From a bacterium (GTDB lineage: Bacteria; Elusimicrobiota; Elusimicrobia; UBA1565; UBA9628), in assembly GCA_021822495.1 (NCBI GenBank), contig JAKAQO010000001.1, positions 576,808 through 640,807 of the forward strand: 64,000 bases of DNA, given 5' to 3'. The notes under the pieces are model-generated. The model saw only the letters and a program-made list of their open reading frames with translations, did no database searches and had not been told where the DNA came from. Each line of letters starts with the position of its first letter. Position 1 is the first letter of the stretch. A program made the translations under genes and the position numbers. This document shows positions 5,281 through 37,758 of the stretch, piece by piece.

Positions 5281-5309
5281 TTGACAGAAGAAGATTCATC
5301 CGCTACACT
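5281..5309 (+). promoter_or_regulatory. sigma-70-type promoter of the kinase-phosphatase-FHA operon
   Basis: TTGACA at 5281-5286, a 17-bp spacer, then TACACT at 5304-5309. The -35 is a perfect match, and this TTGACA could be misread as a TTG start codon for the kinase. The expected transcription start (near 5316) lies upstream of the in-frame ATG at 5332, which argues for the ATG. Confidence 0.65.
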
Positions 5310-5331
5310 TTTGGAAGCAACCTTAAAAATA

Positions 5332-7866
5332 ATGTTGAGAAAAAAAGGACTTGTCTGGGATATCTTGTTGGGGGTTTTCCTGACCTCTCTCATTTCCCTA
5401 GGCTATCGTTTTCCTTCCGCGTTTCCCGTTTTTAGATCCTTTGAGCGCAAATTCTATGATTGGCGGTCCACTCTTCGCCAAGATTTGGCGTCGGGACGAC
5501 AAATCGCTATTATCGCGATTGATAATGATTCAATTTCACAGTTGGGGCGTTGGCCGTGGCCGCGAACAAGAATCGCCAGGCTTTTGGAGCGGCTAAAAGA
5601 CGCGCAAGCGGCCGTCGTAGGACTAGATATCGTGTATTCCGAGCCGGAAAATAATCGCGGAATTAAGGCCCTTAAAACAATACAACAGAACTATCAGCAA
5701 ATGACTTCTTCGTATAAGATTTATGACCGCCTCCATTTATTTGATACGCTCATCTCATCCGAGGAAGCGCGTTTGGACGCGGATACGCAAATGGCTTCGG
5801 CCATCCAAAAATCTGGAAACGTCGTTTTACCCCTGATTTTTACTCAGGCTACTTCTGGACACGCGGAAACGGCCGCAGTCCCTCCTTTGTTTTCAAGCGC
5901 GAGCGTGCGCTTAGCCGTGACCCCTGATATGAACCGCTCCGAGATTCCAAGGGGTTTTGATCCGGCCTATCCAATCGCCCCTTTCGCTCAAGCCGAGGCC
6001 GGAATCGGCCATGCTAATTTAATATCTGATTCCGATGGGATTTTGCGGCGCGTTTATCCCGTGATGAGTTACCGGGATTTTTATATTCCCGCGTATTCCT
6101 TGGCTTTGGCTCTGGCTTTTCAAAAAATACCGCCCTCCGCCGCGACGTTCTCTCCGGGGAAATCAGTCGATTTCGGAAGCGTCCATATTCCCCTCAATTC
6201 TCGAAGTCAGATGATGATTCTGTTTAACGGCCCGTATCGAACGTTTCGGTATTATTCTTTTAGCGATGTTATGAACGGCCATGTGGACATGGAGGCATTT
6301 AAGGATAAGATTGTACTGGTGGGTTTGACCGCCTCCGGCGTGGATACGCCTTATGCGACCTCGTTGTCTCCACTTATTCCGCCCGTTGAGATTTTGGCGA
6401 ACATCACCTCTAATATTTTAGAAGGTCGGTTTGTTTTTAGGCCTCTCTGGGCGCCGAAGTTAGAATGGGGGCTTATCGCTTTTGTCGGGGCCTTTCTCGT
6501 CTTGGGGTTGCCGTTTCTCTCCGCTTTTTGGGGTTTTACGCTCAGTTTTCTCATGTTTGTGTTCATCCTAGGAGCGGGAAGTTACTTTTTCATTCTAGGA
6601 GAATGGGTTAAAACGAGCTATCCAGCCGTTTTGTTGGCTTTAGGATATTTAGTCGGGGTCGTTCGGCGGTTTTTCGTTACGGAAAAGGGCAAGGAACTCG
6701 TCGAGGCTTCAGCCATTGAAACCAACAAAATGTTGGGGCTGTCCTTTCAAGGGCAAGGAATGCTCGATCTCGCTTTTGAAAAGTTTCGCCTGTGCCCGAT
6801 GGATGAAGCGATGAAGGAAATTCTCTATAACCTCGCTTTGGATTTTGAGAGAAAAAGACAATTCGCTAAGGCCGCTTCAGTTTTGGAGATGATCGCCCAG
6901 AAAGACCGAAAATACAAGGACATTCAATCGAAGATGATGGTTCTTAAAACTGCGGCCAATGGCGCGGTTTTGCCGGGCGCCATTGGCGCTAAAAAAGAAG
7001 GGACGGTCGTCATCGCCGCCGGAGCGGCCAAGCCTACCTTGGGAAGATACGAGATCCAAAAAGAACTGGCTCGCGGCGCGATGGGGATTGTTTATCTCGG
7101 GAAAGACCCAAAAATTAACCGCTGGGTCGCGATTAAAACCATGAGTCTTGGAGAAGATGTAGATGCCGCATCGGTGAAGGAAATTAAGGAGCGTTTTTTC
7201 CGCGAGGCAGAAGCGGCCGGGAAGCTCAATCATCCGAATATCATTCGCATTTTCGACGCCGGGGAAGAAGACGATGTCGCCTATATCGCCATGGAATTTT
7301 TGGAAGGGCAAAGTTTGTCGGCCTACACGGAAAAGAGCCATTTAATCCCCTTTAAGTCGGCGATGGAGTATACCGCGATTGTCGCCGACGCCTTGGCTTA
7401 TGCCCATGAACAAGGCGTCGTTCACCGGGATATCAAGCCGGCCAATATCATGATTCTTAAAGACGGAAGCCTTCGCGTCGCGGATTTTGGAATCGCTCGC
7501 GTGGCGGCCTCTTCCAAAACGGCGACTGGAACTGTCATGGGAACGCCCGCTTACATGAGCCCGGAACAAATAGCCGGAAAAAAGGTGGATGGCCGCGCGG
7601 ATATTTTTTCCTTAAGCGTAGTTCTTTTTGAGCTTTTGACCGGAGAAAAACCATTTAAAGGCGGAGAGGGAATTGGAGCTCTTCTTTTTCAAATTGCCAA
7701 CGACCCTCACCCTGATCCTTTATCCATTGTGCCGTCCCTGCCCCCTTTAGTGTCAACAATCCTGAATCGCGGGTTGGCCAAAAATCCGGACGCAAGATAT
7801 CAAAATGCTTCGGAGATGGCCCGTGATATTCGCGCGTGTTATGGGAGTTTAAAGGCGCAGGTATGA
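5332..7866 (+). CDS. CHASE2-domain transmembrane Ser/Thr protein kinase
   Basis: 844 residues from the ATG at 5332. Order: N-terminal membrane helix, extracytoplasmic CHASE2 sensor (about 30-360, ending with the typical DKIVLVGLTASGVDTPYATS), three membrane helices (about 376-441), a helical repeat-like linker, and a Hanks-type kinase domain (about 569-840). Kinase motifs are complete: GAMGIVYLG, VAIK lysine near 601, VVHRDIKPANIM near 695, VADFGIAR near 716, and GTPAYMSPEQ. It should sense an envelope signal and phosphorylate Ser/Thr in the cytoplasm. It overlaps the PP2C gene (ATGA), which should reverse its action; the FHA protein that follows is a likely phospho-reader. Confidence 0.92.
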   Translation: MLRKKGLVWDILLGVFLTSLISLGYRFPSAFPVFRSFERKFYDWRSTLRQDLASGRQIAIIAIDNDSISQLGRWPWPRTRIARLLERLKDAQAAVVGLDIVYSEPENNRGIKALKTIQQNYQQMTSSYKIYDRLHLFDTLISSEEARLDADTQMASAIQKSGNVVLPLIFTQATSGHAETAAVPPLFSSASVRLAVTPDMNRSEIPRGFDPAYPIAPFAQAEAGIGHANLISDSDGILRRVYPVMSYRDFYIPAYSLALALAFQKIPPSAATFSPGKSVDFGSVHIPLNSRSQMMILFNGPYRTFRYYSFSDVMNGHVDMEAFKDKIVLVGLTASGVDTPYATSLSPLIPPVEILANITSNILEGRFVFRPLWAPKLEWGLIAFVGAFLVLGLPFLSAFWGFTLSFLMFVFILGAGSYFFILGEWVKTSYPAVLLALGYLVGVVRRFFVTEKGKELVEASAIETNKMLGLSFQGQGMLDLAFEKFRLCPMDEAMKEILYNLALDFERKRQFAKAASVLEMIAQKDRKYKDIQSKMMVLKTAANGAVLPGAIGAKKEGTVVIAAGAAKPTLGRYEIQKELARGAMGIVYLGKDPKINRWVAIKTMSLGEDVDAASVKEIKERFFREAEAAGKLNHPNIIRIFDAGEEDDVAYIAMEFLEGQSLSAYTEKSHLIPFKSAMEYTAIVADALAYAHEQGVVHRDIKPANIMILKDGSLRVADFGIARVAASSKTATGTVMGTPAYMSPEQIAGKKVDGRADIFSLSVVLFELLTGEKPFKGGEGIGALLFQIANDPHPDPLSIVPSLPPLVSTILNRGLAKNPDARYQNASEMARDIRACYGSLKAQV

Positions 7867-8681
7867 GCGCTCCTTTTGAGGCGGCGGGGCTTACCGATGT
7901 TGGGCGCGTGCGCGCAAATAATGAGGACTCTTTTTTTTGCGACGGGGAAAAAGGAATTTTTATCGTCGCCGACGGTATGGGCGGGCATAATTCTGGAGAA
8001 GTCGCGAGTTCTTTTGCGGTTTCCCTAGTCAAGGATTTCCTCGTTCAAAAAAGTTCGGATTTCGGTTGCCGAATTTCGTCCGCGGATTTAGAAGCCGGGG
8101 TCAAGGCGGCCAATAGCCTGGTCTACGCCAAAGGGCGCGCTTTGCCCAAGGATTCGGGAATGGGAACCACCTTGGTCTGCGCTTGTGGGGACGGGGAAAC
8201 TCTGACTGTCGCGCATGTGGGAGACAGCCGCGCCTATATTTTGAGAAAGGGCGTTTTATCCTGTTTGACCGAGGATCATTCGGTCGTTCAAGAACAAATT
8301 AGAAGAGGTCTCATTCGGCAAGAAGAGGCGGCCGTTTCCGAGCTTCAAAATCTATTGACTCGGGCGGTGGGGTCAAACCCCGAAGTGGATGTGGATATTT
8401 CCACTCATCCGTTATTTTTTGGAGACCTTCTCCTCCTTGCTTCCGACGGTTTAACTAAAATGGTTCCAGATTTTCGAATTCAAGAGATTTTATCGCGCAA
8501 AGAAGACATATCCACTCTCGCATCGAAACTTGTGTCGGAGGCGCTTAAAGCGGGGGGGCTCGATAACGTGACGGTCGTGGTCGCGCGGGTCCGGAGAGAA
8601 GGAAAAAAATCGCGCCTGGGTTCTTCTTGGTCTAAAGTGAAATCAATTCTCAGAGGGGCTGATGCCAAAACTTCTTCTTAA
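7863..8681 (+). CDS. PP2C-family Ser/Thr protein phosphatase
   Basis: 272 residues; the ATG at 7863 overlaps the kinase stop. All metal-binding PP2C motifs are present: RANNEDSFF, VADGMGGHNSGEVAS, GTTLV, AHVGDSRAY, LLASDGLTKMV and GLDNVTVVVARV. No membrane helix; a basic C-terminal tail follows the domain. Bacterial PP2C (PrpC/Stp-type) enzymes dephosphorylate Ser/Thr sites made by Hanks kinases, so it is the direct antagonist of the upstream kinase. It overlaps the FHA gene by 20 nt. Confidence 0.93.
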   Translation: MSAPFEAAGLTDVGRVRANNEDSFFCDGEKGIFIVADGMGGHNSGEVASSFAVSLVKDFLVQKSSDFGCRISSADLEAGVKAANSLVYAKGRALPKDSGMGTTLVCACGDGETLTVAHVGDSRAYILRKGVLSCLTEDHSVVQEQIRRGLIRQEEAAVSELQNLLTRAVGSNPEVDVDISTHPLFFGDLLLLASDGLTKMVPDFRIQEILSRKEDISTLASKLVSEALKAGGLDNVTVVVARVRREGKKSRLGSSWSKVKSILRGADAKTSS

Positions 8682-9348
8682 GTTTAACGCGGCGGTGCTT
8701 AAGGAAATTAATTTAGGGCGGGAACCTCTTTTGGTCGGAAGGAGCCCTAATAACGACATAGTTATTAATAATCCCGCGGTTTCGTCCAACCATTGCAAAA
8801 TTACCCTGGAAGGCGAAACCTATTATGTCGAGGATTTAGACTCGACCAATGGAACCTATGTCAATGAGAAGAGAATTAAAAAATGCGGCCTTCATAATCA
8901 AGATATCGTTGGCATCGCCAAACATTCCTTGGTTTTTGTTGAACCCCCCGCTTCCGCCGTAGAGGATAAAACCATTTTCTTGACTCCGGAAAAACAATCC
9001 CAGATTCTCGCTCAATCGGTCAAGACTCCGTCAAAACCCGCCGTATTGAAGGTTTTAAAGGGCTTAGCCGGAGAACCAGAATATGAACTCAAAGGGCTCT
9101 CCACCTATATCGGAAAATCGGAAAGAGTCCAAGTTCCGATCAAGGGAACAGGCCTTTTTGGCTCCGCGCCCGAAGTGGCCGCCTCCATCCATCGAAAATC
9201 CGAAGGTTATCATTTAATTGCCGTGGTTCCCGGCTACCCCATTTTAAACGGAGAAAAAGTCTTCGCTTCGGTTCCGCTCAAAGACGGAGATATTTTAGTT
9301 TGCGGCGGGACGACGTTTCAGTTTAACCTGGAAAATTCCGCCGCTTAA
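8662..9348 (+). CDS. double FHA-domain protein
   Basis: 228 residues. The first FHA domain (about 20-95) is canonical: LLVGRSPNNDIVI, VSSNHCKI, and DLDSTNGTYVN, the residues that clamp phosphothreonine. A second half (about 130-225) looks like another, degenerate FHA domain (TYIGKS, ASIHRKSEGYHL, YPILNGEKV, LKDGDILVCGGTTFQF), with weaker binding residues. It probably docks on targets phosphorylated by the operon's kinase. Last gene of the operon; its end overlaps the convergent PAP2 gene by 4 nt. Confidence 0.88.
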   Translation: MPKLLLKFNAAVLKEINLGREPLLVGRSPNNDIVINNPAVSSNHCKITLEGETYYVEDLDSTNGTYVNEKRIKKCGLHNQDIVGIAKHSLVFVEPPASAVEDKTIFLTPEKQSQILAQSVKTPSKPAVLKVLKGLAGEPEYELKGLSTYIGKSERVQVPIKGTGLFGSAPEVAASIHRKSEGYHLIAVVPGYPILNGEKVFASVPLKDGDILVCGGTTFQFNLENSAA

Positions 9349-10001
9349 AACTTTTTTGAGATTCCCACCGACCAATCCCGTCCCGGGATAATCTGGAGAG
9401 TAAACGGCGACTTAAAAAAATGCCGTGCCGCCCAACCCGAGGCGAAACCTAAGGCCATGCCTCCAATAGTGTCAGTCGGATAATGCCCGCGAGCTTCAAC
9501 CCGCGCGGCGGCATCCGCCACGGGCAGAAGAGCGAGGAGATAAGCCATCGGGTGATCAGCTCCATATTCATAGATGAAGGGAGACACCAAGGCTGCGGTA
9601 TTAGAAACATCACTGGAGGGAAAACTTTGGCTTTGGGGACCCGAGAACCAGGCATTGGCCCCCAAGTCCTGGGTTGGGCGGGCTCTTTGAAAAGCGTATT
9701 TAAGTCCGGTATTGGAAACGGAAGCGATGACGGCGGAATCGAGACTTTGCCAGAGAGTTTTCCCAAACCGCGTCTGGGCCCCGTCCCAAATCGCGCTTCC
9801 GGCCGTTAAAGTCGTCATTGCCATCGGAAAATAAGGAGTCGTGAAAATCGCCCAGGGCCCGCTGATATGCGGCGTTCTTGGAGAACAATCAATAAGATTG
9901 GGGCAAGACCACAACGCCTGCGGCAAAAAGAATAAAACAGTCAAAAGAACAAGAATGCGAAAGCGTTCAGTGGCCGGAATTGGGTAAAAAATATTTTTCA
10001 A
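9345..10001 (-). CDS. PAP2-family phosphatase, exported or membrane-associated
   Basis: The start is uncertain. A TTG at 10001 gives an N-terminus with a hydrophobic export segment (ILVLLTVLFFLPQALW) and overlaps accC by 35 nt; the longer ATG frame to 10154 runs deep into accC and is unlikely. PAP2 motifs: KYAFQRARP (motif 1), SFPSSDVSNT (motif 2) and ARVEARGHYPTD (motif 3). Motif 2 is usually PSGH; here Asp replaces His, a variant also seen in some exported PAP2 branches. The motif 3 His nucleophile is kept. Likely substrates are lipid phosphates or pyrophosphates at the outer face of the membrane. Confidence 0.75.
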   Translation of the reverse strand: MKNIFYPIPATERFRILVLLTVLFFLPQALWSCPNLIDCSPRTPHISGPWAIFTTPYFPMAMTTLTAGSAIWDGAQTRFGKTLWQSLDSAVIASVSNTGLKYAFQRARPTQDLGANAWFSGPQSQSFPSSDVSNTAALVSPFIYEYGADHPMAYLLALLPVADAAARVEARGHYPTDTIGGMALGFASGWAARHFFKSPFTLQIIPGRDWSVGISKKF

Positions 10002-11319
10002 CAAAGGAAGTATCGAAATCTCCGGATAAGAAATCTGGGTGAGAAAGAACTTTTTTGTGAAAGTCCCGCGTGGTTTTAATTCCAGAGGTTTCAAGCTCTG
10101 ACAGCGCCCGGAGACTGCGTTTGACCGCATTTCCCCGGTCGGAAGCGAAAACAATGAGCTTGGCGATCAAACTATCGTAAAAACTAGGAACGGTGTATCC
10201 GGCGTAGAGATGGGTGTCAAGCCTGACTCCGCAGCCGCCTGGTAAAACAACCTCAGAAATCTTTCCCGGAGACGGGGCGAAATTATGCTCCGGGTCCTCG
10301 GCGTTAATGCGGTGTTCAATGGAGTGAAAATGAATTTCAGAAGCCCGCGCCTGATCAAAGGGCATTTTTTCGCCCGCAGCCAGGCGTATTTGGGTGTTGA
10401 CCAGATCAAGACCAGTGACCGATTCTGTGACAGGGTGTTCGACTTGGAGGCGAGTGTTGACCTCAATAAAATAGAAATTGCCGTCAGGCCCTAGTAAAAA
10501 TTCAACAGTGCCGACATTGGAATACTTCGCCGCTAAAGCCAGATTTCTCGCCGCGGCCTGCATCTTGGCGCGAATTTCAGGAGTAACCTTGGGAGAAGGA
10601 GATTCCTCGATGAGCTTTTGATGTCGTCTTTGAACGGTGCAGTCTCTTTCAGGAAAAGCAACGACATTTCCAAAATTGTCGGCGGCAATTTGAATTTCCA
10701 CATGCCTTGGGCGTTCAATAAATTTTTCGATATAGACCGAGCCGTCTCCAAAAGCGGCTTGGGCCTCGCTTTGAGCAAGTTTGAGTTGCTCTTCCAGATC
10801 CTTTGGATCGCGGACAAGCCTGAGCCCCTTTCCACCTCCGCCTGAGGCGGCCTTAACCATCACTGGAAAGCCCACGGCCTGGGCTTCTTTCATAAAATTT
10901 TCATCCACCAATCCTTGGGTACCAGGCACAACCGGAACTTTTGCTTCCCGGGCTAGGGTTTTAGCAGTGCTTTTATATCCCAGTTTGCGTATGGCCGCGG
11001 CGGAAGGGCCGATAAAAACAAGGCCGTTTTTGACGCAGGCCTCGGCAAAATCTGCGTTTTCGGATAAAAACCCATATCCCGGGTGAACGGCCTCGGCCTT
11101 GCTTAAGCGCGCGGCGGTTAACAGAGCTTCGGAATTAAGGTAACTCTGTTTGGCCGGAGCCGGGCCGATGCAGTAGGCTTCATCTGCCAGGCGAACATGC
11201 ATCGATTCCCGGTCGGCCTCGGAGTAAACGGCGACGGATTGAATGCCCATTTCCCGGCAGGCTCGGATAACTCGCACTGCGATTTCGCCGCGATTGGCGA
11301 TAAGAATCTTTTTAAACAC
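9967..11319 (-). CDS. accC: biotin carboxylase (acetyl-CoA carboxylase AccC type)
   Basis: 450 residues, the usual length. It starts FKKILIANRGEIAVRVIRA and carries the ATP-grasp loop VKAASGGGGKGLR, the bicarbonate/biotin region ERDCTVQRRHQKLIEESPS, and the metal-site segment FIEVNTRLQVEHPVTE. It carboxylates biotin on a carrier protein using ATP and bicarbonate, the first half-reaction of acetyl-CoA carboxylase. It lies 2 nt downstream of the BCCP-like gene, which lacks the biotin-accepting lysine motif, so its carrier may be encoded elsewhere or the pair may have another task. Confidence 0.95.
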   Translation of the reverse strand: MFKKILIANRGEIAVRVIRACREMGIQSVAVYSEADRESMHVRLADEAYCIGPAPAKQSYLNSEALLTAARLSKAEAVHPGYGFLSENADFAEACVKNGLVFIGPSAAAIRKLGYKSTAKTLAREAKVPVVPGTQGLVDENFMKEAQAVGFPVMVKAASGGGGKGLRLVRDPKDLEEQLKLAQSEAQAAFGDGSVYIEKFIERPRHVEIQIAADNFGNVVAFPERDCTVQRRHQKLIEESPSPKVTPEIRAKMQAAARNLALAAKYSNVGTVEFLLGPDGNFYFIEVNTRLQVEHPVTESVTGLDLVNTQIRLAAGEKMPFDQARASEIHFHSIEHRINAEDPEHNFAPSPGKISEVVLPGGCGVRLDTHLYAGYTVPSFYDSLIAKLIVFASDRGNAVKRSLRALSELETSGIKTTRDFHKKVLSHPDFLSGDFDTSFVEKYFLPNSGH

Positions 11320-11321
11320 GA

Positions 11322-11714
11322 TTATTTTCCGTCCGGTTCTATAAAGAGAAGGGCTTGTCCGTAGGCAACAGGGCTGGAATCTTCAACTAAGATGCGGGCA
11401 GCTCTCCCAGAAGAAGCGACCTTGACCGGAACCGTTTTTCCCGGCAAGGTTTCGATGTATCCAATGGTCTCTTCCGCTAAAAGAGAATTTCCTTCCTCTA
11501 TTTTTTGCGGATGGCCAGGACGGGACCAGCGGAAGGTGCCTATCGCCGGAGCCGAGACGACTTGATAATGGGCCTGGGGCATTTCCGCGAAGGATTCGTC
11601 TGGGTGTTCGGTAGTCGTAAATGAGAATCCCGAACCTTTTTCCTTAAGGGACACCGAAGTAAGATCAGTCGTTTTAACCCAGCCGAGAATTTCTTTAATC
11701 TGTTCCGTTTTCAC
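11322..11714 (-). CDS. accB: BCCP-like protein without the biotinylation motif
   Basis: 130 residues with the AccB layout: N-terminal helix (QIKEILGWV), linker, and a biotinyl-like domain beginning SAPAIGTFRWSRPG and ending VAYGQALLFIEPDG. In the biotinylation hairpin, where AccB proteins have EAMK(L/M)M, this one reads IETLPGKTVPV (Lys93 in PGK), with one extra residue. Reading the other two frames over this stretch does not restore EAMKM, so a simple sequencing frameshift does not explain it. It directly precedes accC. Either a carrier using an altered site, a decoy, or a regulatory subunit. The symbol reflects fold and context, not proven function. Confidence 0.8.
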   Translation of the reverse strand: MKTEQIKEILGWVKTTDLTSVSLKEKGSGFSFTTTEHPDESFAEMPQAHYQVVSAPAIGTFRWSRPGHPQKIEEGNSLLAEETIGYIETLPGKTVPVKVASSGRAARILVEDSSPVAYGQALLFIEPDGK

Positions 11715-11771
11715 GATTCCTCCGGAAAATCTTATTTTCGCCTCAGCTCATTTTAGCATTTTCGTTTCCTG

Positions 11772-12037
11772 AGGGCTTGGAAAGAAATAAGGTATCCATC
11801 TCGGAGGTTCGATGTTGAGACGATTTCAAGGCGCGAGAAGCGAGCATAACGAGTTATGTGAGCGCCGAGCAACGAAGAAATCGGCCAAGAGCGAACCTCC
11901 CCGAAGGGCCGGGGCGATTTTGGGCTGCGCCTTCGTCGTTCGTCGCTTACATAGCTCAAGCTATGCTCGCTCCTCACTTCTCGGCTCGCTCCAAAATCGC
12001 CCCGGCGAGATGGATACCTTATTTCTTTCCAAGCCCT
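11772..12037. repeat. 266-bp branched (three-way) palindromic element
   Basis: This fills most of the only gene-free stretch longer than 300 bases (11715-12150). Outer arms 11772-11803 and 12006-12037 are 32-bp perfect inverted repeats. Inside lie two long hairpins: one with base 11803-11811/11892-11900 and an inner stem 11821-11827/11877-11883, and one with base 11909-11923/11991-12005 (15 bp perfect). The hairpin tips carry related short palindromes (CATAAC-GAG-GTTATG and CATAGC-TCAA-GCTATG-like) flanked by similar AGCGAGC/GAGCG and AACGAAG words, so the two halves look like diverged copies. No convincing gene lies inside. It may be a MITE-like mobile element, a dispersed intergenic palindrome or a structured RNA. 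Confidence 0.8.
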
Positions 12038-12106
12038 TAGGGCGCATTTCTCAAGCGCGGCGGAGGGAAAATAACTGGTAAAATAAATTTGTTTCCGACG
12101 AATGAG

Positions 12107-36500: not shown

Positions 36501-37688
36501 TTAGATCAGGGTTCTCGGATTTTCCAGATGCTTGACGAAGGTGTTCATAAACATCGCCGCCTGAGCGCCGTCTGTAATGCGGTGATCGAAAGAGAGAATA
36601 AAATTGGCCATCTTTCTGATTTCAACCTTGCCGTCCCGAACCATGGGGCGATCTTGAATTTTCATCACTCCTAAAATTGCGACTTCTGGAAAATTGATGA
36701 TGGGAGTCGCGAAAAGCCCTCCCAAGGGCCCGATATTGGTAATCGTAAAGGTTCCCCCTTGCATTTCGGAAACCTCTAGGCGACTGGCGCGCGCTTTCTC
36801 GGCTAAGCGCTCAATTTCCGCGGCCAGGCCCCAGACATCCATATTGCCCGCGCCTTTAACGACCGGGACCACAAGCCCCTGATCGGCGGAGACGGCAATG
36901 CCGATATTATAGGAGCGTTTTTCAATAATCACGCCCTCAGTTTCGTTTAAAGTCGCGTTAAACATGGGAAATTCCGGAAACGTTTTGACCAAGGCCTTAA
37001 TGATAAACGGAAGGTAGGTTAGTTTAATCGTTCGTTGCTCGGCTTCTTTTTTCATTTCTTCCCGCAATTGAACCAAGGCGGTCAAATCCGCTTCTTCCAT
37101 ATGGGCCACATGGGGGATTTTTCTCCAGCTCTCGGACATTTTATCCGCGATTTTTCTTCGGATACCGGTAAAGGGAATTTTAATATCGGAAGAAGAAGCC
37201 GGAACCGAAGAAGCGGCTTTAGGGGTTCCGCCAACTGCGCTCCGAACATCAATTTCGGTCACCCGTCCGCCCGGGCCAGTTCCTTTAATAGCCGCAATAT
37301 CCACGCCTAAATCCTTGGCGAGTTTGCGAACCGCCGGAGTCGCGCTCACTGAAGAAGACGCCGGTTTTTCCGCGACCGCAACAGAACTCTTGATCTCAGT
37401 TGAAGCTGAAGCCGCCACGGAATGAGCAGACAGTGTTCCGCCCCCCACGCCTTCAATATCAAAAATGACCAAGGGAGCGTGAACCTGGACCTTTTCGCCG
37501 GGCTTGGCCATGAGTTTTGTCACCTTGCCGGTTTTGGGACTGGGGATTTCAACTTCCGCTTTATCCGTCAAAACGTTACAGAGAGGCTCGTTTTCCTTAA
37601 CAGACTGTCCTTCTTGAACATGCCATTTAACGACTTCTCCTTCGGTCAAACCTTCTCCGATGTCCGGCAATTTAAATTCGTAATTCAT
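36501..37688 (-). CDS. 2-oxoacid dehydrogenase E2 (dihydrolipoamide acyltransferase)
   Basis: 395 residues from the ATG at 37688, preceded by GGAGG. Lipoyl domain (1-80) with the lipoylation lysine Lys43 in LTDKAEVEI; a flexible Ala/Ser/Val linker; a peripheral-subunit-binding domain (ATPAVRKLAKDLGVDIAAIKGTGPGGRV); and a catalytic domain ending with FDHRITDGAQAA, which holds the active-site His and Asp. Substrate class (pyruvate, branched-chain or 2-oxoglutarate) cannot be fixed; the binding domain and single lipoyl domain fit pyruvate or branched-chain types. No E1 gene is adjacent. Confidence 0.92.
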   Translation of the reverse strand: MNYEFKLPDIGEGLTEGEVVKWHVQEGQSVKENEPLCNVLTDKAEVEIPSPKTGKVTKLMAKPGEKVQVHAPLVIFDIEGVGGGTLSAHSVAASASTEIKSSVAVAEKPASSSVSATPAVRKLAKDLGVDIAAIKGTGPGGRVTEIDVRSAVGGTPKAASSVPASSSDIKIPFTGIRRKIADKMSESWRKIPHVAHMEEADLTALVQLREEMKKEAEQRTIKLTYLPFIIKALVKTFPEFPMFNATLNETEGVIIEKRSYNIGIAVSADQGLVVPVVKGAGNMDVWGLAAEIERLAEKARASRLEVSEMQGGTFTITNIGPLGGLFATPIINFPEVAILGVMKIQDRPMVRDGKVEIRKMANFILSFDHRITDGAQAAMFMNTFVKHLENPRTLI

Positions 37689-37758
37689 AACATCCTCCAC
37701 TCAAAAATTCTCTTACAAATTGATTCTATCAATTGTCCAACCCCTCCTCAAAATCAGA

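What the first reader, a model, noticed from the sequence alone, without database searches (positions are those of the whole stretch)
11322..11714. BCCP-like protein beside accC lacks the biotin-accepting EAMKM motif
The protein keeps the rest of the biotinyl domain, including the start and end of the beta-barrel, but the hairpin reads IETLPGKTVPV. AccB without a biotinyl lysine should not support carboxylation. Other frames do not restore the motif. Lys93 in PGK is one or two positions off and in a different context. Either the carrier is biotinylated at a shifted lysine, carries another modification, or is a regulatory dummy and a true BCCP is elsewhere.
Basis: seen in the sequence. Interest (0 to 1): 0.75.

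Follow-up and report, generated by a model that had tools for sequence, protein, structure and literature searches.

The report
Biotin-less partner of bacterial biotin carboxylase
A bacterial group keeps, next to its only biotin carboxylase gene, a copy of the biotin carrier protein that has lost the place where biotin is attached, which suggests a non-catalytic helper subunit of the kind so far described from plants.

Summary
Window 11322-11714 (minus strand) encodes a 130-aa AccB-type protein directly upstream of accC. It keeps the BCCP barrel, but its biotin hairpin reads IETLPGKTVPV: no AMKM, proline at the lysine position, Lys93 one to two residues off. It is not an error. The same hairpin occurs in all five genomes of the genus, and the motif is gone in 71 of 114 Elusimicrobiota genomes whose accC-side copy I read. 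Selection is purifying (dN/dS 0.05-0.15).

The genome has a second, intact AccB (EAMKVFNE, beside pnp), one BirA and one biotin carboxylase. So this is an ancient paralogue, AccB2, that stopped carrying biotin. In other families of the phylum AccB2 still reads AMK, with six scattered Lys-to-Arg/Gln losses. Full erosion coincides with loss of the split AccA/AccD carboxyltransferase (0 of 71 keep AccA; 70 of 71 have fused PccB-type ones). Of genomes that keep the motif, 41 of 43 have AccA.

Best reading: a non-catalytic AccC-associated subunit, functionally like plant BADC and arisen separately. Binding and effect are inferred, not shown. My searches found no description of it in print.

The parts
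11322..11714 (-). AccB2*: 130-aa BCCP paralogue without biotinylation motif
11616..11714 (-). N-terminal helix and beta-hairpin (residues 1-33) with the conserved WxKxTDL segment
   Evidence: W12, T16, D17, L18 are in 90% or more of 44 orthologues; predicted helix 3-13 and strands 20-25, 28-33
11334..11564 (-). biotinyl-type beta-barrel (residues 51-127)
11424..11453 (-). hairpin ETLPGKTVPV (residues 88-97) in place of the AMKM biotin-accepting hairpin
11719..11723 (-). GGAGG, likely ribosome-binding site before the GTG start
   Evidence: read from the sequence
9967..11319 (-). accC, biotin carboxylase; the only one found in the genome
   Evidence: TIGR00514 643.6 bits against cut-off 626.5; single Biotin_carb_N match in the genome

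Best explanation
AccB2* is a conserved, non-biotinylated paralogue of the biotin carrier. It works as a non-catalytic subunit of the biotin carboxylase module: it joins AccC, and probably the true carrier AccB1, through its N-terminal segment and barrel, and helps assemble or tune the complex instead of carrying CO2. Shown here: the sequence state, its spread in the phylum, purifying selection, linkage to the sole accC, the intact second carrier, and co-occurrence with the carboxyltransferase replacement. Inferred: absence of biotin in the cell, physical binding to AccC/AccB1, and the direction of the effect (assembly or inhibition).
For: Motif lost in 71 of 114 genomes whose AccB2 was read; the aligned residue is not lysine in 57 of those 71. 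All 54 AccB1-type rows read EAMK (one, L154 of G052, is a doubtful extra copy), as do 7 of 7 further ones. dN/dS in the genus is 0.054-0.148 over 10 pairs. The eroded copy lies on the same strand as accC and within about 2.3 kb of it in 61 of 71 fetched stretches; the other 10 stretches did not show accC. The own genome has one BC and one BirA; the other matches over the Biotin_lipoyl cut-off are AccB1, an E2 and a GcvH-like protein. The BCCP fold is kept. The nearly fixed residues lie in the N-terminal segment and barrel, while the hairpin tip varies. Lys-to-Arg/Gln changes occur in six more AccB2 copies, never in AccB1 rows read. AccA is present in 0 of 71 eroded and 41 of 43 motif-keeping genomes.
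Against: No interaction was tested. The N-terminal match to E. coli BCCP is not significant alone (7.9 bits). 14 of 71 eroded copies have a lysine in the aligned column without the preceding Met (for example EMNKT, EAGKR, ETAKG), so biotinylation in those lineages is not excluded. In at least four relatives a zinc-ribbon gene sits between accB2* and accC, so the pair is not always contiguous. Erosion and carboxyltransferase swap are probably one event on one branch, so the correlation is not replicated.
Confidence: 0.55

Rival explanations
1. AccB2* is specifically a docking adaptor between free AccC and the fused PccB-type carboxyltransferases that replaced AccA/AccD, like the epsilon subunit of actinobacterial acyl-CoA carboxylases or the BT domain of PCC/MCC.
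For: Erosion and carboxyltransferase replacement coincide. In the own genome one AccC must serve three PccB-type carboxyltransferases if all are active. AccC ends at 450 aa and shows no added domain. The E subunit of Thermobifida facilitates holoenzyme assembly (passages of PMC7835884). The BT domain is recalled, from no call.
Against: AccB2 existed, and lost its lysine in six copies, in lineages that kept AccA/AccD. No binding data. In PMC7835884 the E subunit binds the CT subunit, not the BC-bearing subunit.
Confidence: 0.2
2. AccB2* is a regulator of expression of its own operon or a partner of the neighbouring zinc-ribbon protein, and no longer part of the enzyme.
For: Position at the head of the accC operon; a zinc-ribbon gene between it and accC in four relatives examined. 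Autoregulation by E. coli AccB is recalled, from no call.
Against: No known DNA-binding fold among the matches of the model, though the N-terminal part was barely tested there. The zinc-ribbon gene is absent between the two genes in the window and in L238 of the same genus.
Confidence: 0.1
3. The protein is biotinylated on a shifted lysine (K93), or carries another modification there.
For: K93 is constant in 5 of 5 genomes of the genus and sits at the hairpin tip.
Against: Residue 93 is Lys in only 18 of 44 orthologues. A separate intact carrier exists. That biotin ligases reject a lysine moved by one residue is recalled, from no call.
Confidence: 0.04
4. A decaying duplicate or assembly error.
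For: Motif erosion and low scores against Biotin_lipoyl.
Against: Same state in independent genomes, open frames, dN/dS well below 1, and conserved N-terminal and barrel residues.
Confidence: 0.01

Closest known systems
BADC proteins of the plastid heteromeric acetyl-CoA carboxylase
   Same: BCCP-like, no biotinylation motif, present beside true BCCP and one BC (features from passages of PMC11926652 and PMC7712654).
   Different: Plant plastid proteins working with split CT-alpha/CT-beta. Here bacterial, encoded next to accC, apparently arisen separately, and in genomes that lack AccA/AccD. PMC11926652 calls BADC unique to the plant enzyme.
AccB (BCCP) of bacterial acetyl-CoA carboxylase, for example E. 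coli (1bdo, 4hr7)
   Same: Fold, N-terminal segment followed by barrel, accB-accC gene order.
   Different: No lysine in an AMK context; very short linker; variable hairpin tip.
Epsilon/E subunits of actinobacterial acyl-CoA carboxylases
   Same: A small non-catalytic subunit that works with a fused-type carboxyltransferase.
   Different: The E subunit is encoded next to the CT gene and binds CT (PMC7835884). AccB2* is a BCCP homologue encoded next to accC.

Membership tests
AccB / BCCP | biotinyl-domain fold | tested here: met
   AlphaFold2 model (pLDDT 83.8), 1bdo Z 14.4, rmsd 2.1, 79 residues
AccB / BCCP | biotin-accepting lysine in an AMK context | tested here: not met
   ETLPGK in the window; six frames checked
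AccB / BCCP | score above the curated AccB cut-off (TIGR00531) | tested here: not met
   35 bits against 115.2
BADC (plant non-catalytic ACCase subunit) | BCCP homologue without biotinylation motif beside a true BCCP | tested here: met
BADC (plant non-catalytic ACCase subunit) | orthology with plant BADC | not tested
   no plant sequences compared; separate origin inferred from AccB2 copies with AMK in the same phylum
BADC (plant non-catalytic ACCase subunit) | binds BC and BCCP and alters ACCase assembly or activity | not testable with these tools
   needs biochemistry
Epsilon subunit of acyl-CoA carboxylase | encoded beside the carboxyltransferase gene | tested here: not met
   encoded beside accC; the three CT genes are elsewhere
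Lipoyl-domain proteins (E2, GcvH) | lipoyl-accepting lysine at the hairpin | tested here: not met
   no lysine at the position; nearest curated models are AccB models, not E2 or GcvH

The most novel reading that the evidence does not exclude
A bacterial counterpart of plant BADC, evolved independently. The accC-linked BCCP of Elusimicrobiota gave up biotin and became an obligatory structural subunit of one shared biotin carboxylase-carrier core, at the time the lineage replaced AccA/AccD by PccB-type carboxyltransferases. In the window's genome that core would serve three of them (acetyl-, propionyl- and methylcrotonyl-CoA type).
Probability: 0.35. Interest if true: 0.8.

Novelty: new variant of a known kind. 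Interest (0 to 1): 0.62.

Why it matters
Acetyl-CoA carboxylase commits carbon to fatty acid synthesis. Whether plant BADC is an inhibitor or assembly glue is disputed in the passages I read (PMC11926652, PMC7712654). A bacterial system with the same loss of biotin, the AMK-bearing state alive in sister families, and repeated single-residue losses (Lys to Arg/Gln) would allow the question to be tested by comparing AccB2 proteins before and after loss. It would also show how a free biotin carboxylase can be shared among several carboxyltransferases.

Tried and rejected
Frameshift or missed frame: no frame of 11200-11800 holds the motif. Assembly error: made very unlikely by the genus relatives. 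A second biotin carboxylase in the genome: none found. Further biotin carriers: the C6 Biotin_lipoyl match is GcvH-like (ESVKAA), and the weaker matches I read looked HlyD- or peptidase-like by eye. Lys93 as a family modification site: rejected by its variability.

A collection scan with the diverse alignment A1 was not possible, so the named scan used the smaller alignment A2. None of the 80 loci kept by that scan has MK in the hairpin. Two regex hits, L269 and L252, are EGMK before the hairpin, not in it. That scan returns at most 80 loci (88 encoded a relative) and uses short patterns drawn from eroded copies, so absence from other phyla was not tested.

The zinc-ribbon gene between accB2* and accC was identified in four loci but not pursued; the intervening reading frame taken from L019 matched nothing and was probably the wrong frame. 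Literature: searches showed no description of a lysine-less AccB in bacteria; I saw listings only, apart from the papers cited, and subscription papers are largely missing from the library. PMC3199775: passages and section 5 read. PMC11926652, PMC7712654 and PMC7835884: passages only.

Results against the reading: G090 is eroded and shows no fused CT at 1e-40. G084 and G086 keep AMK and show no AccA (drafts about 85% and 80% complete). G068 and G328 keep AMK and have both CT types. The tree is a quick one on 122 columns with SH-aLRT only; its eroded group has support 88, not starred. 27 near-duplicate rows (168 to 141) were dropped before the tree. dS exceeds 1 in 7 of 10 AccB2 pairs, so those ratios are rough; the three pairs with dS near 0.3 give 0.09-0.148. 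In one search the row of G302 (L222) was labelled accC-linked although its stretch did not show accC.

Full report
What is there. The window lies at G000:C4:576808-640807 of a 2.2-Mb genome whose named relatives are Elusimicrobiota MAGs. On the minus strand, 11322-11714 encodes 130 aa. It is followed 2 bases later by accC at 9967-11319, which passes the accC model (643.6 bits, cut-off 626.5). The small protein is AccB-like over residues 48-126 (TIGR00531 35 bits, PRK07051 36 bits) but far below the curated AccB cut-off. AlphaFold2 on 44 orthologues gives an N-terminal helix and hairpin and a biotinyl barrel (pLDDT 83.8, pTM 0.59). The barrel matches E. coli BCCP (1bdo Z 14.4, rmsd 2.1, 79 residues; 4hr7_G Z 14.3, rmsd 1.2, 76 residues) and Arabidopsis BCCP1 (9a87 Z 13.8, rmsd 1.7, 78 residues). 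Where BCCP has E-A-M-K-M, the window reads E-T-L-P-G-K-T, one residue longer.

The true carrier is elsewhere. A 175-aa AccB with CMIEAMKVFNE lies on contig C15 between pnp and an ftsK-like gene, both named by eye. It is one of two strong Biotin_lipoyl matches in the genome, the other being an E2-like protein in the window at 36501-37700. A weaker match is GcvH-like. There is one biotin carboxylase and one BirA.

The loss is clade-wide and under selection. A protein search found relatives in 92 of 97 genomes at E 0.001, canonical copies included. I fetched accC-side copies and classified 114 genomes. 71 are eroded: families f1-f5, f10-f12 and f15. 37 read xMK and 6 read xMR or xMQ. Of the 71 eroded, 57 have no lysine in the aligned column and 14 have a lysine without the preceding methionine. 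All 54 AccB1-type rows read EAMK; one of these, L154 of G052, is a doubtful extra copy in a bin with about 6% contamination. Seven further AccB1 rows, from the five AMR genomes and two other genomes of family f21, also read EAMK. None of the 80 named loci has MK in the hairpin. Within the genus, dN/dS of AccB2* is 0.054-0.148 over 10 pairs, AccB1 0.119 (one pair), accC 0.023-0.033 (three pairs). In 44 orthologues W12, T16, D17, L18 and several barrel glycines are nearly fixed, while hairpin positions 91, 94 and 95 are highly variable.

History. On a quick tree the unlinked AccB1 rows sit together (support 91), apart from the accC-linked AccB2 rows. The eroded rows form one group of 55 (support 88). 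The MK state needs at least 7 changes, 5 forced by starred branches. In three AMK-bearing loci (L132, L205, L207) and the AMQ-bearing L147, accB2 lies just downstream of an EF-P-type gene (EF-P confirmed by Pfam for L132 and L205, and by eye for the others), so AccB2 looks like the original operon copy. EAMKI/ETMKI of other classes is replaced by Arg in G308, G330, G331, G335 and G241, and EAMK by Gln in G061.

Link with the carboxyltransferase. AccA (PF03255 at 1e-40) is present in 112 of 340 genomes of the phylum. A fused Carboxyl_trans (PF01039 at 1e-40) is present in 205 of 340. Among the 114 genomes with AccB2 read, AccA is present in 0 of 71 eroded and 41 of 43 motif-keeping ones. The fused type is present in 70 of 71 eroded and 2 of 43 motif-keeping ones. 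An earlier survey's table lists BC but no CT-alpha or CT-beta for its one Elusimicrobia genome (PMC3199775 section 5). In the own genome the three fused carboxyltransferases score best with the mmdA model. One sits with methylmalonyl-CoA epimerase, MeaB and a mutase domain, one with an enoyl-CoA hydratase and HMG-CoA lyase, and one without such neighbours. So one AccC probably serves three carboxyltransferases (inference). Erosion and swap probably happened once together, so this is a coincidence on a branch, not a replicated correlation. The six Lys losses in AccA-bearing lineages suggest that biotin on AccB2 was dispensable even without the swap.

How it most likely works. AccB1 carries CO2 on biotin. 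AccB2* keeps the parts that would contact AccC and partners, and is encoded with accC, so it is best read as a non-catalytic subunit that assembles or tunes the AccC-AccB1 module. The nearest known parallel in function is plant BADC, which lacks the biotinylation motif and is described as glue or as inhibitor of the plastid enzyme (passages of PMC11926652 and PMC7712654). A second parallel is the actinobacterial E subunit (PMC7835884). Membership in either is not claimed. Binding, effect and absence of biotin in vivo are untested.

Noticed in passing
window 11768-12041: A roughly 270-bp element upstream of accB2* with 50-nt terminal inverted repeats (88% complementary) and nested inverted repeats inside; it looks like a small mobile or MITE-like element.
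   Followed up: partly
L136:787-2439, L110:2901-4979, L029:95-1492, L026:1890-2768: A zinc-ribbon (DZR-type) gene lies between accB2* and accC in these relatives; it is absent between them in the window and in L238 of the same genus.
   Followed up: partly
G000:C15:210196-211653, C4:270478-271911, C1:104470-105900: Three fused carboxyltransferases, two of them with propionyl-CoA-like and methylcrotonyl-CoA-like gene contexts, but only one biotin carboxylase in the genome.
   Followed up: partly
L209, L218, L220, L224, L225, L147: Single-residue loss of the biotinyl lysine (AMR or AMQ) in the accC-linked AccB of other Elusimicrobiota families, apparently independent.
   Followed up: yes
window 5281-9348: A cluster of a kinase-like protein, a PP2C-like phosphatase and an FHA-like protein near accC, judged by eye from the translations.
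   Followed up: no
AccB1 rows: AccB1 reads EAMKVFN in 39 rows, all from AccA-lacking genomes, and VMN or VLN in 9 rows of AccA-bearing ones; 6 rows from genomes without an AccA match read VMN or LMN. Possibly an adaptation of the carrier to the new carboxyltransferase.
   Followed up: no
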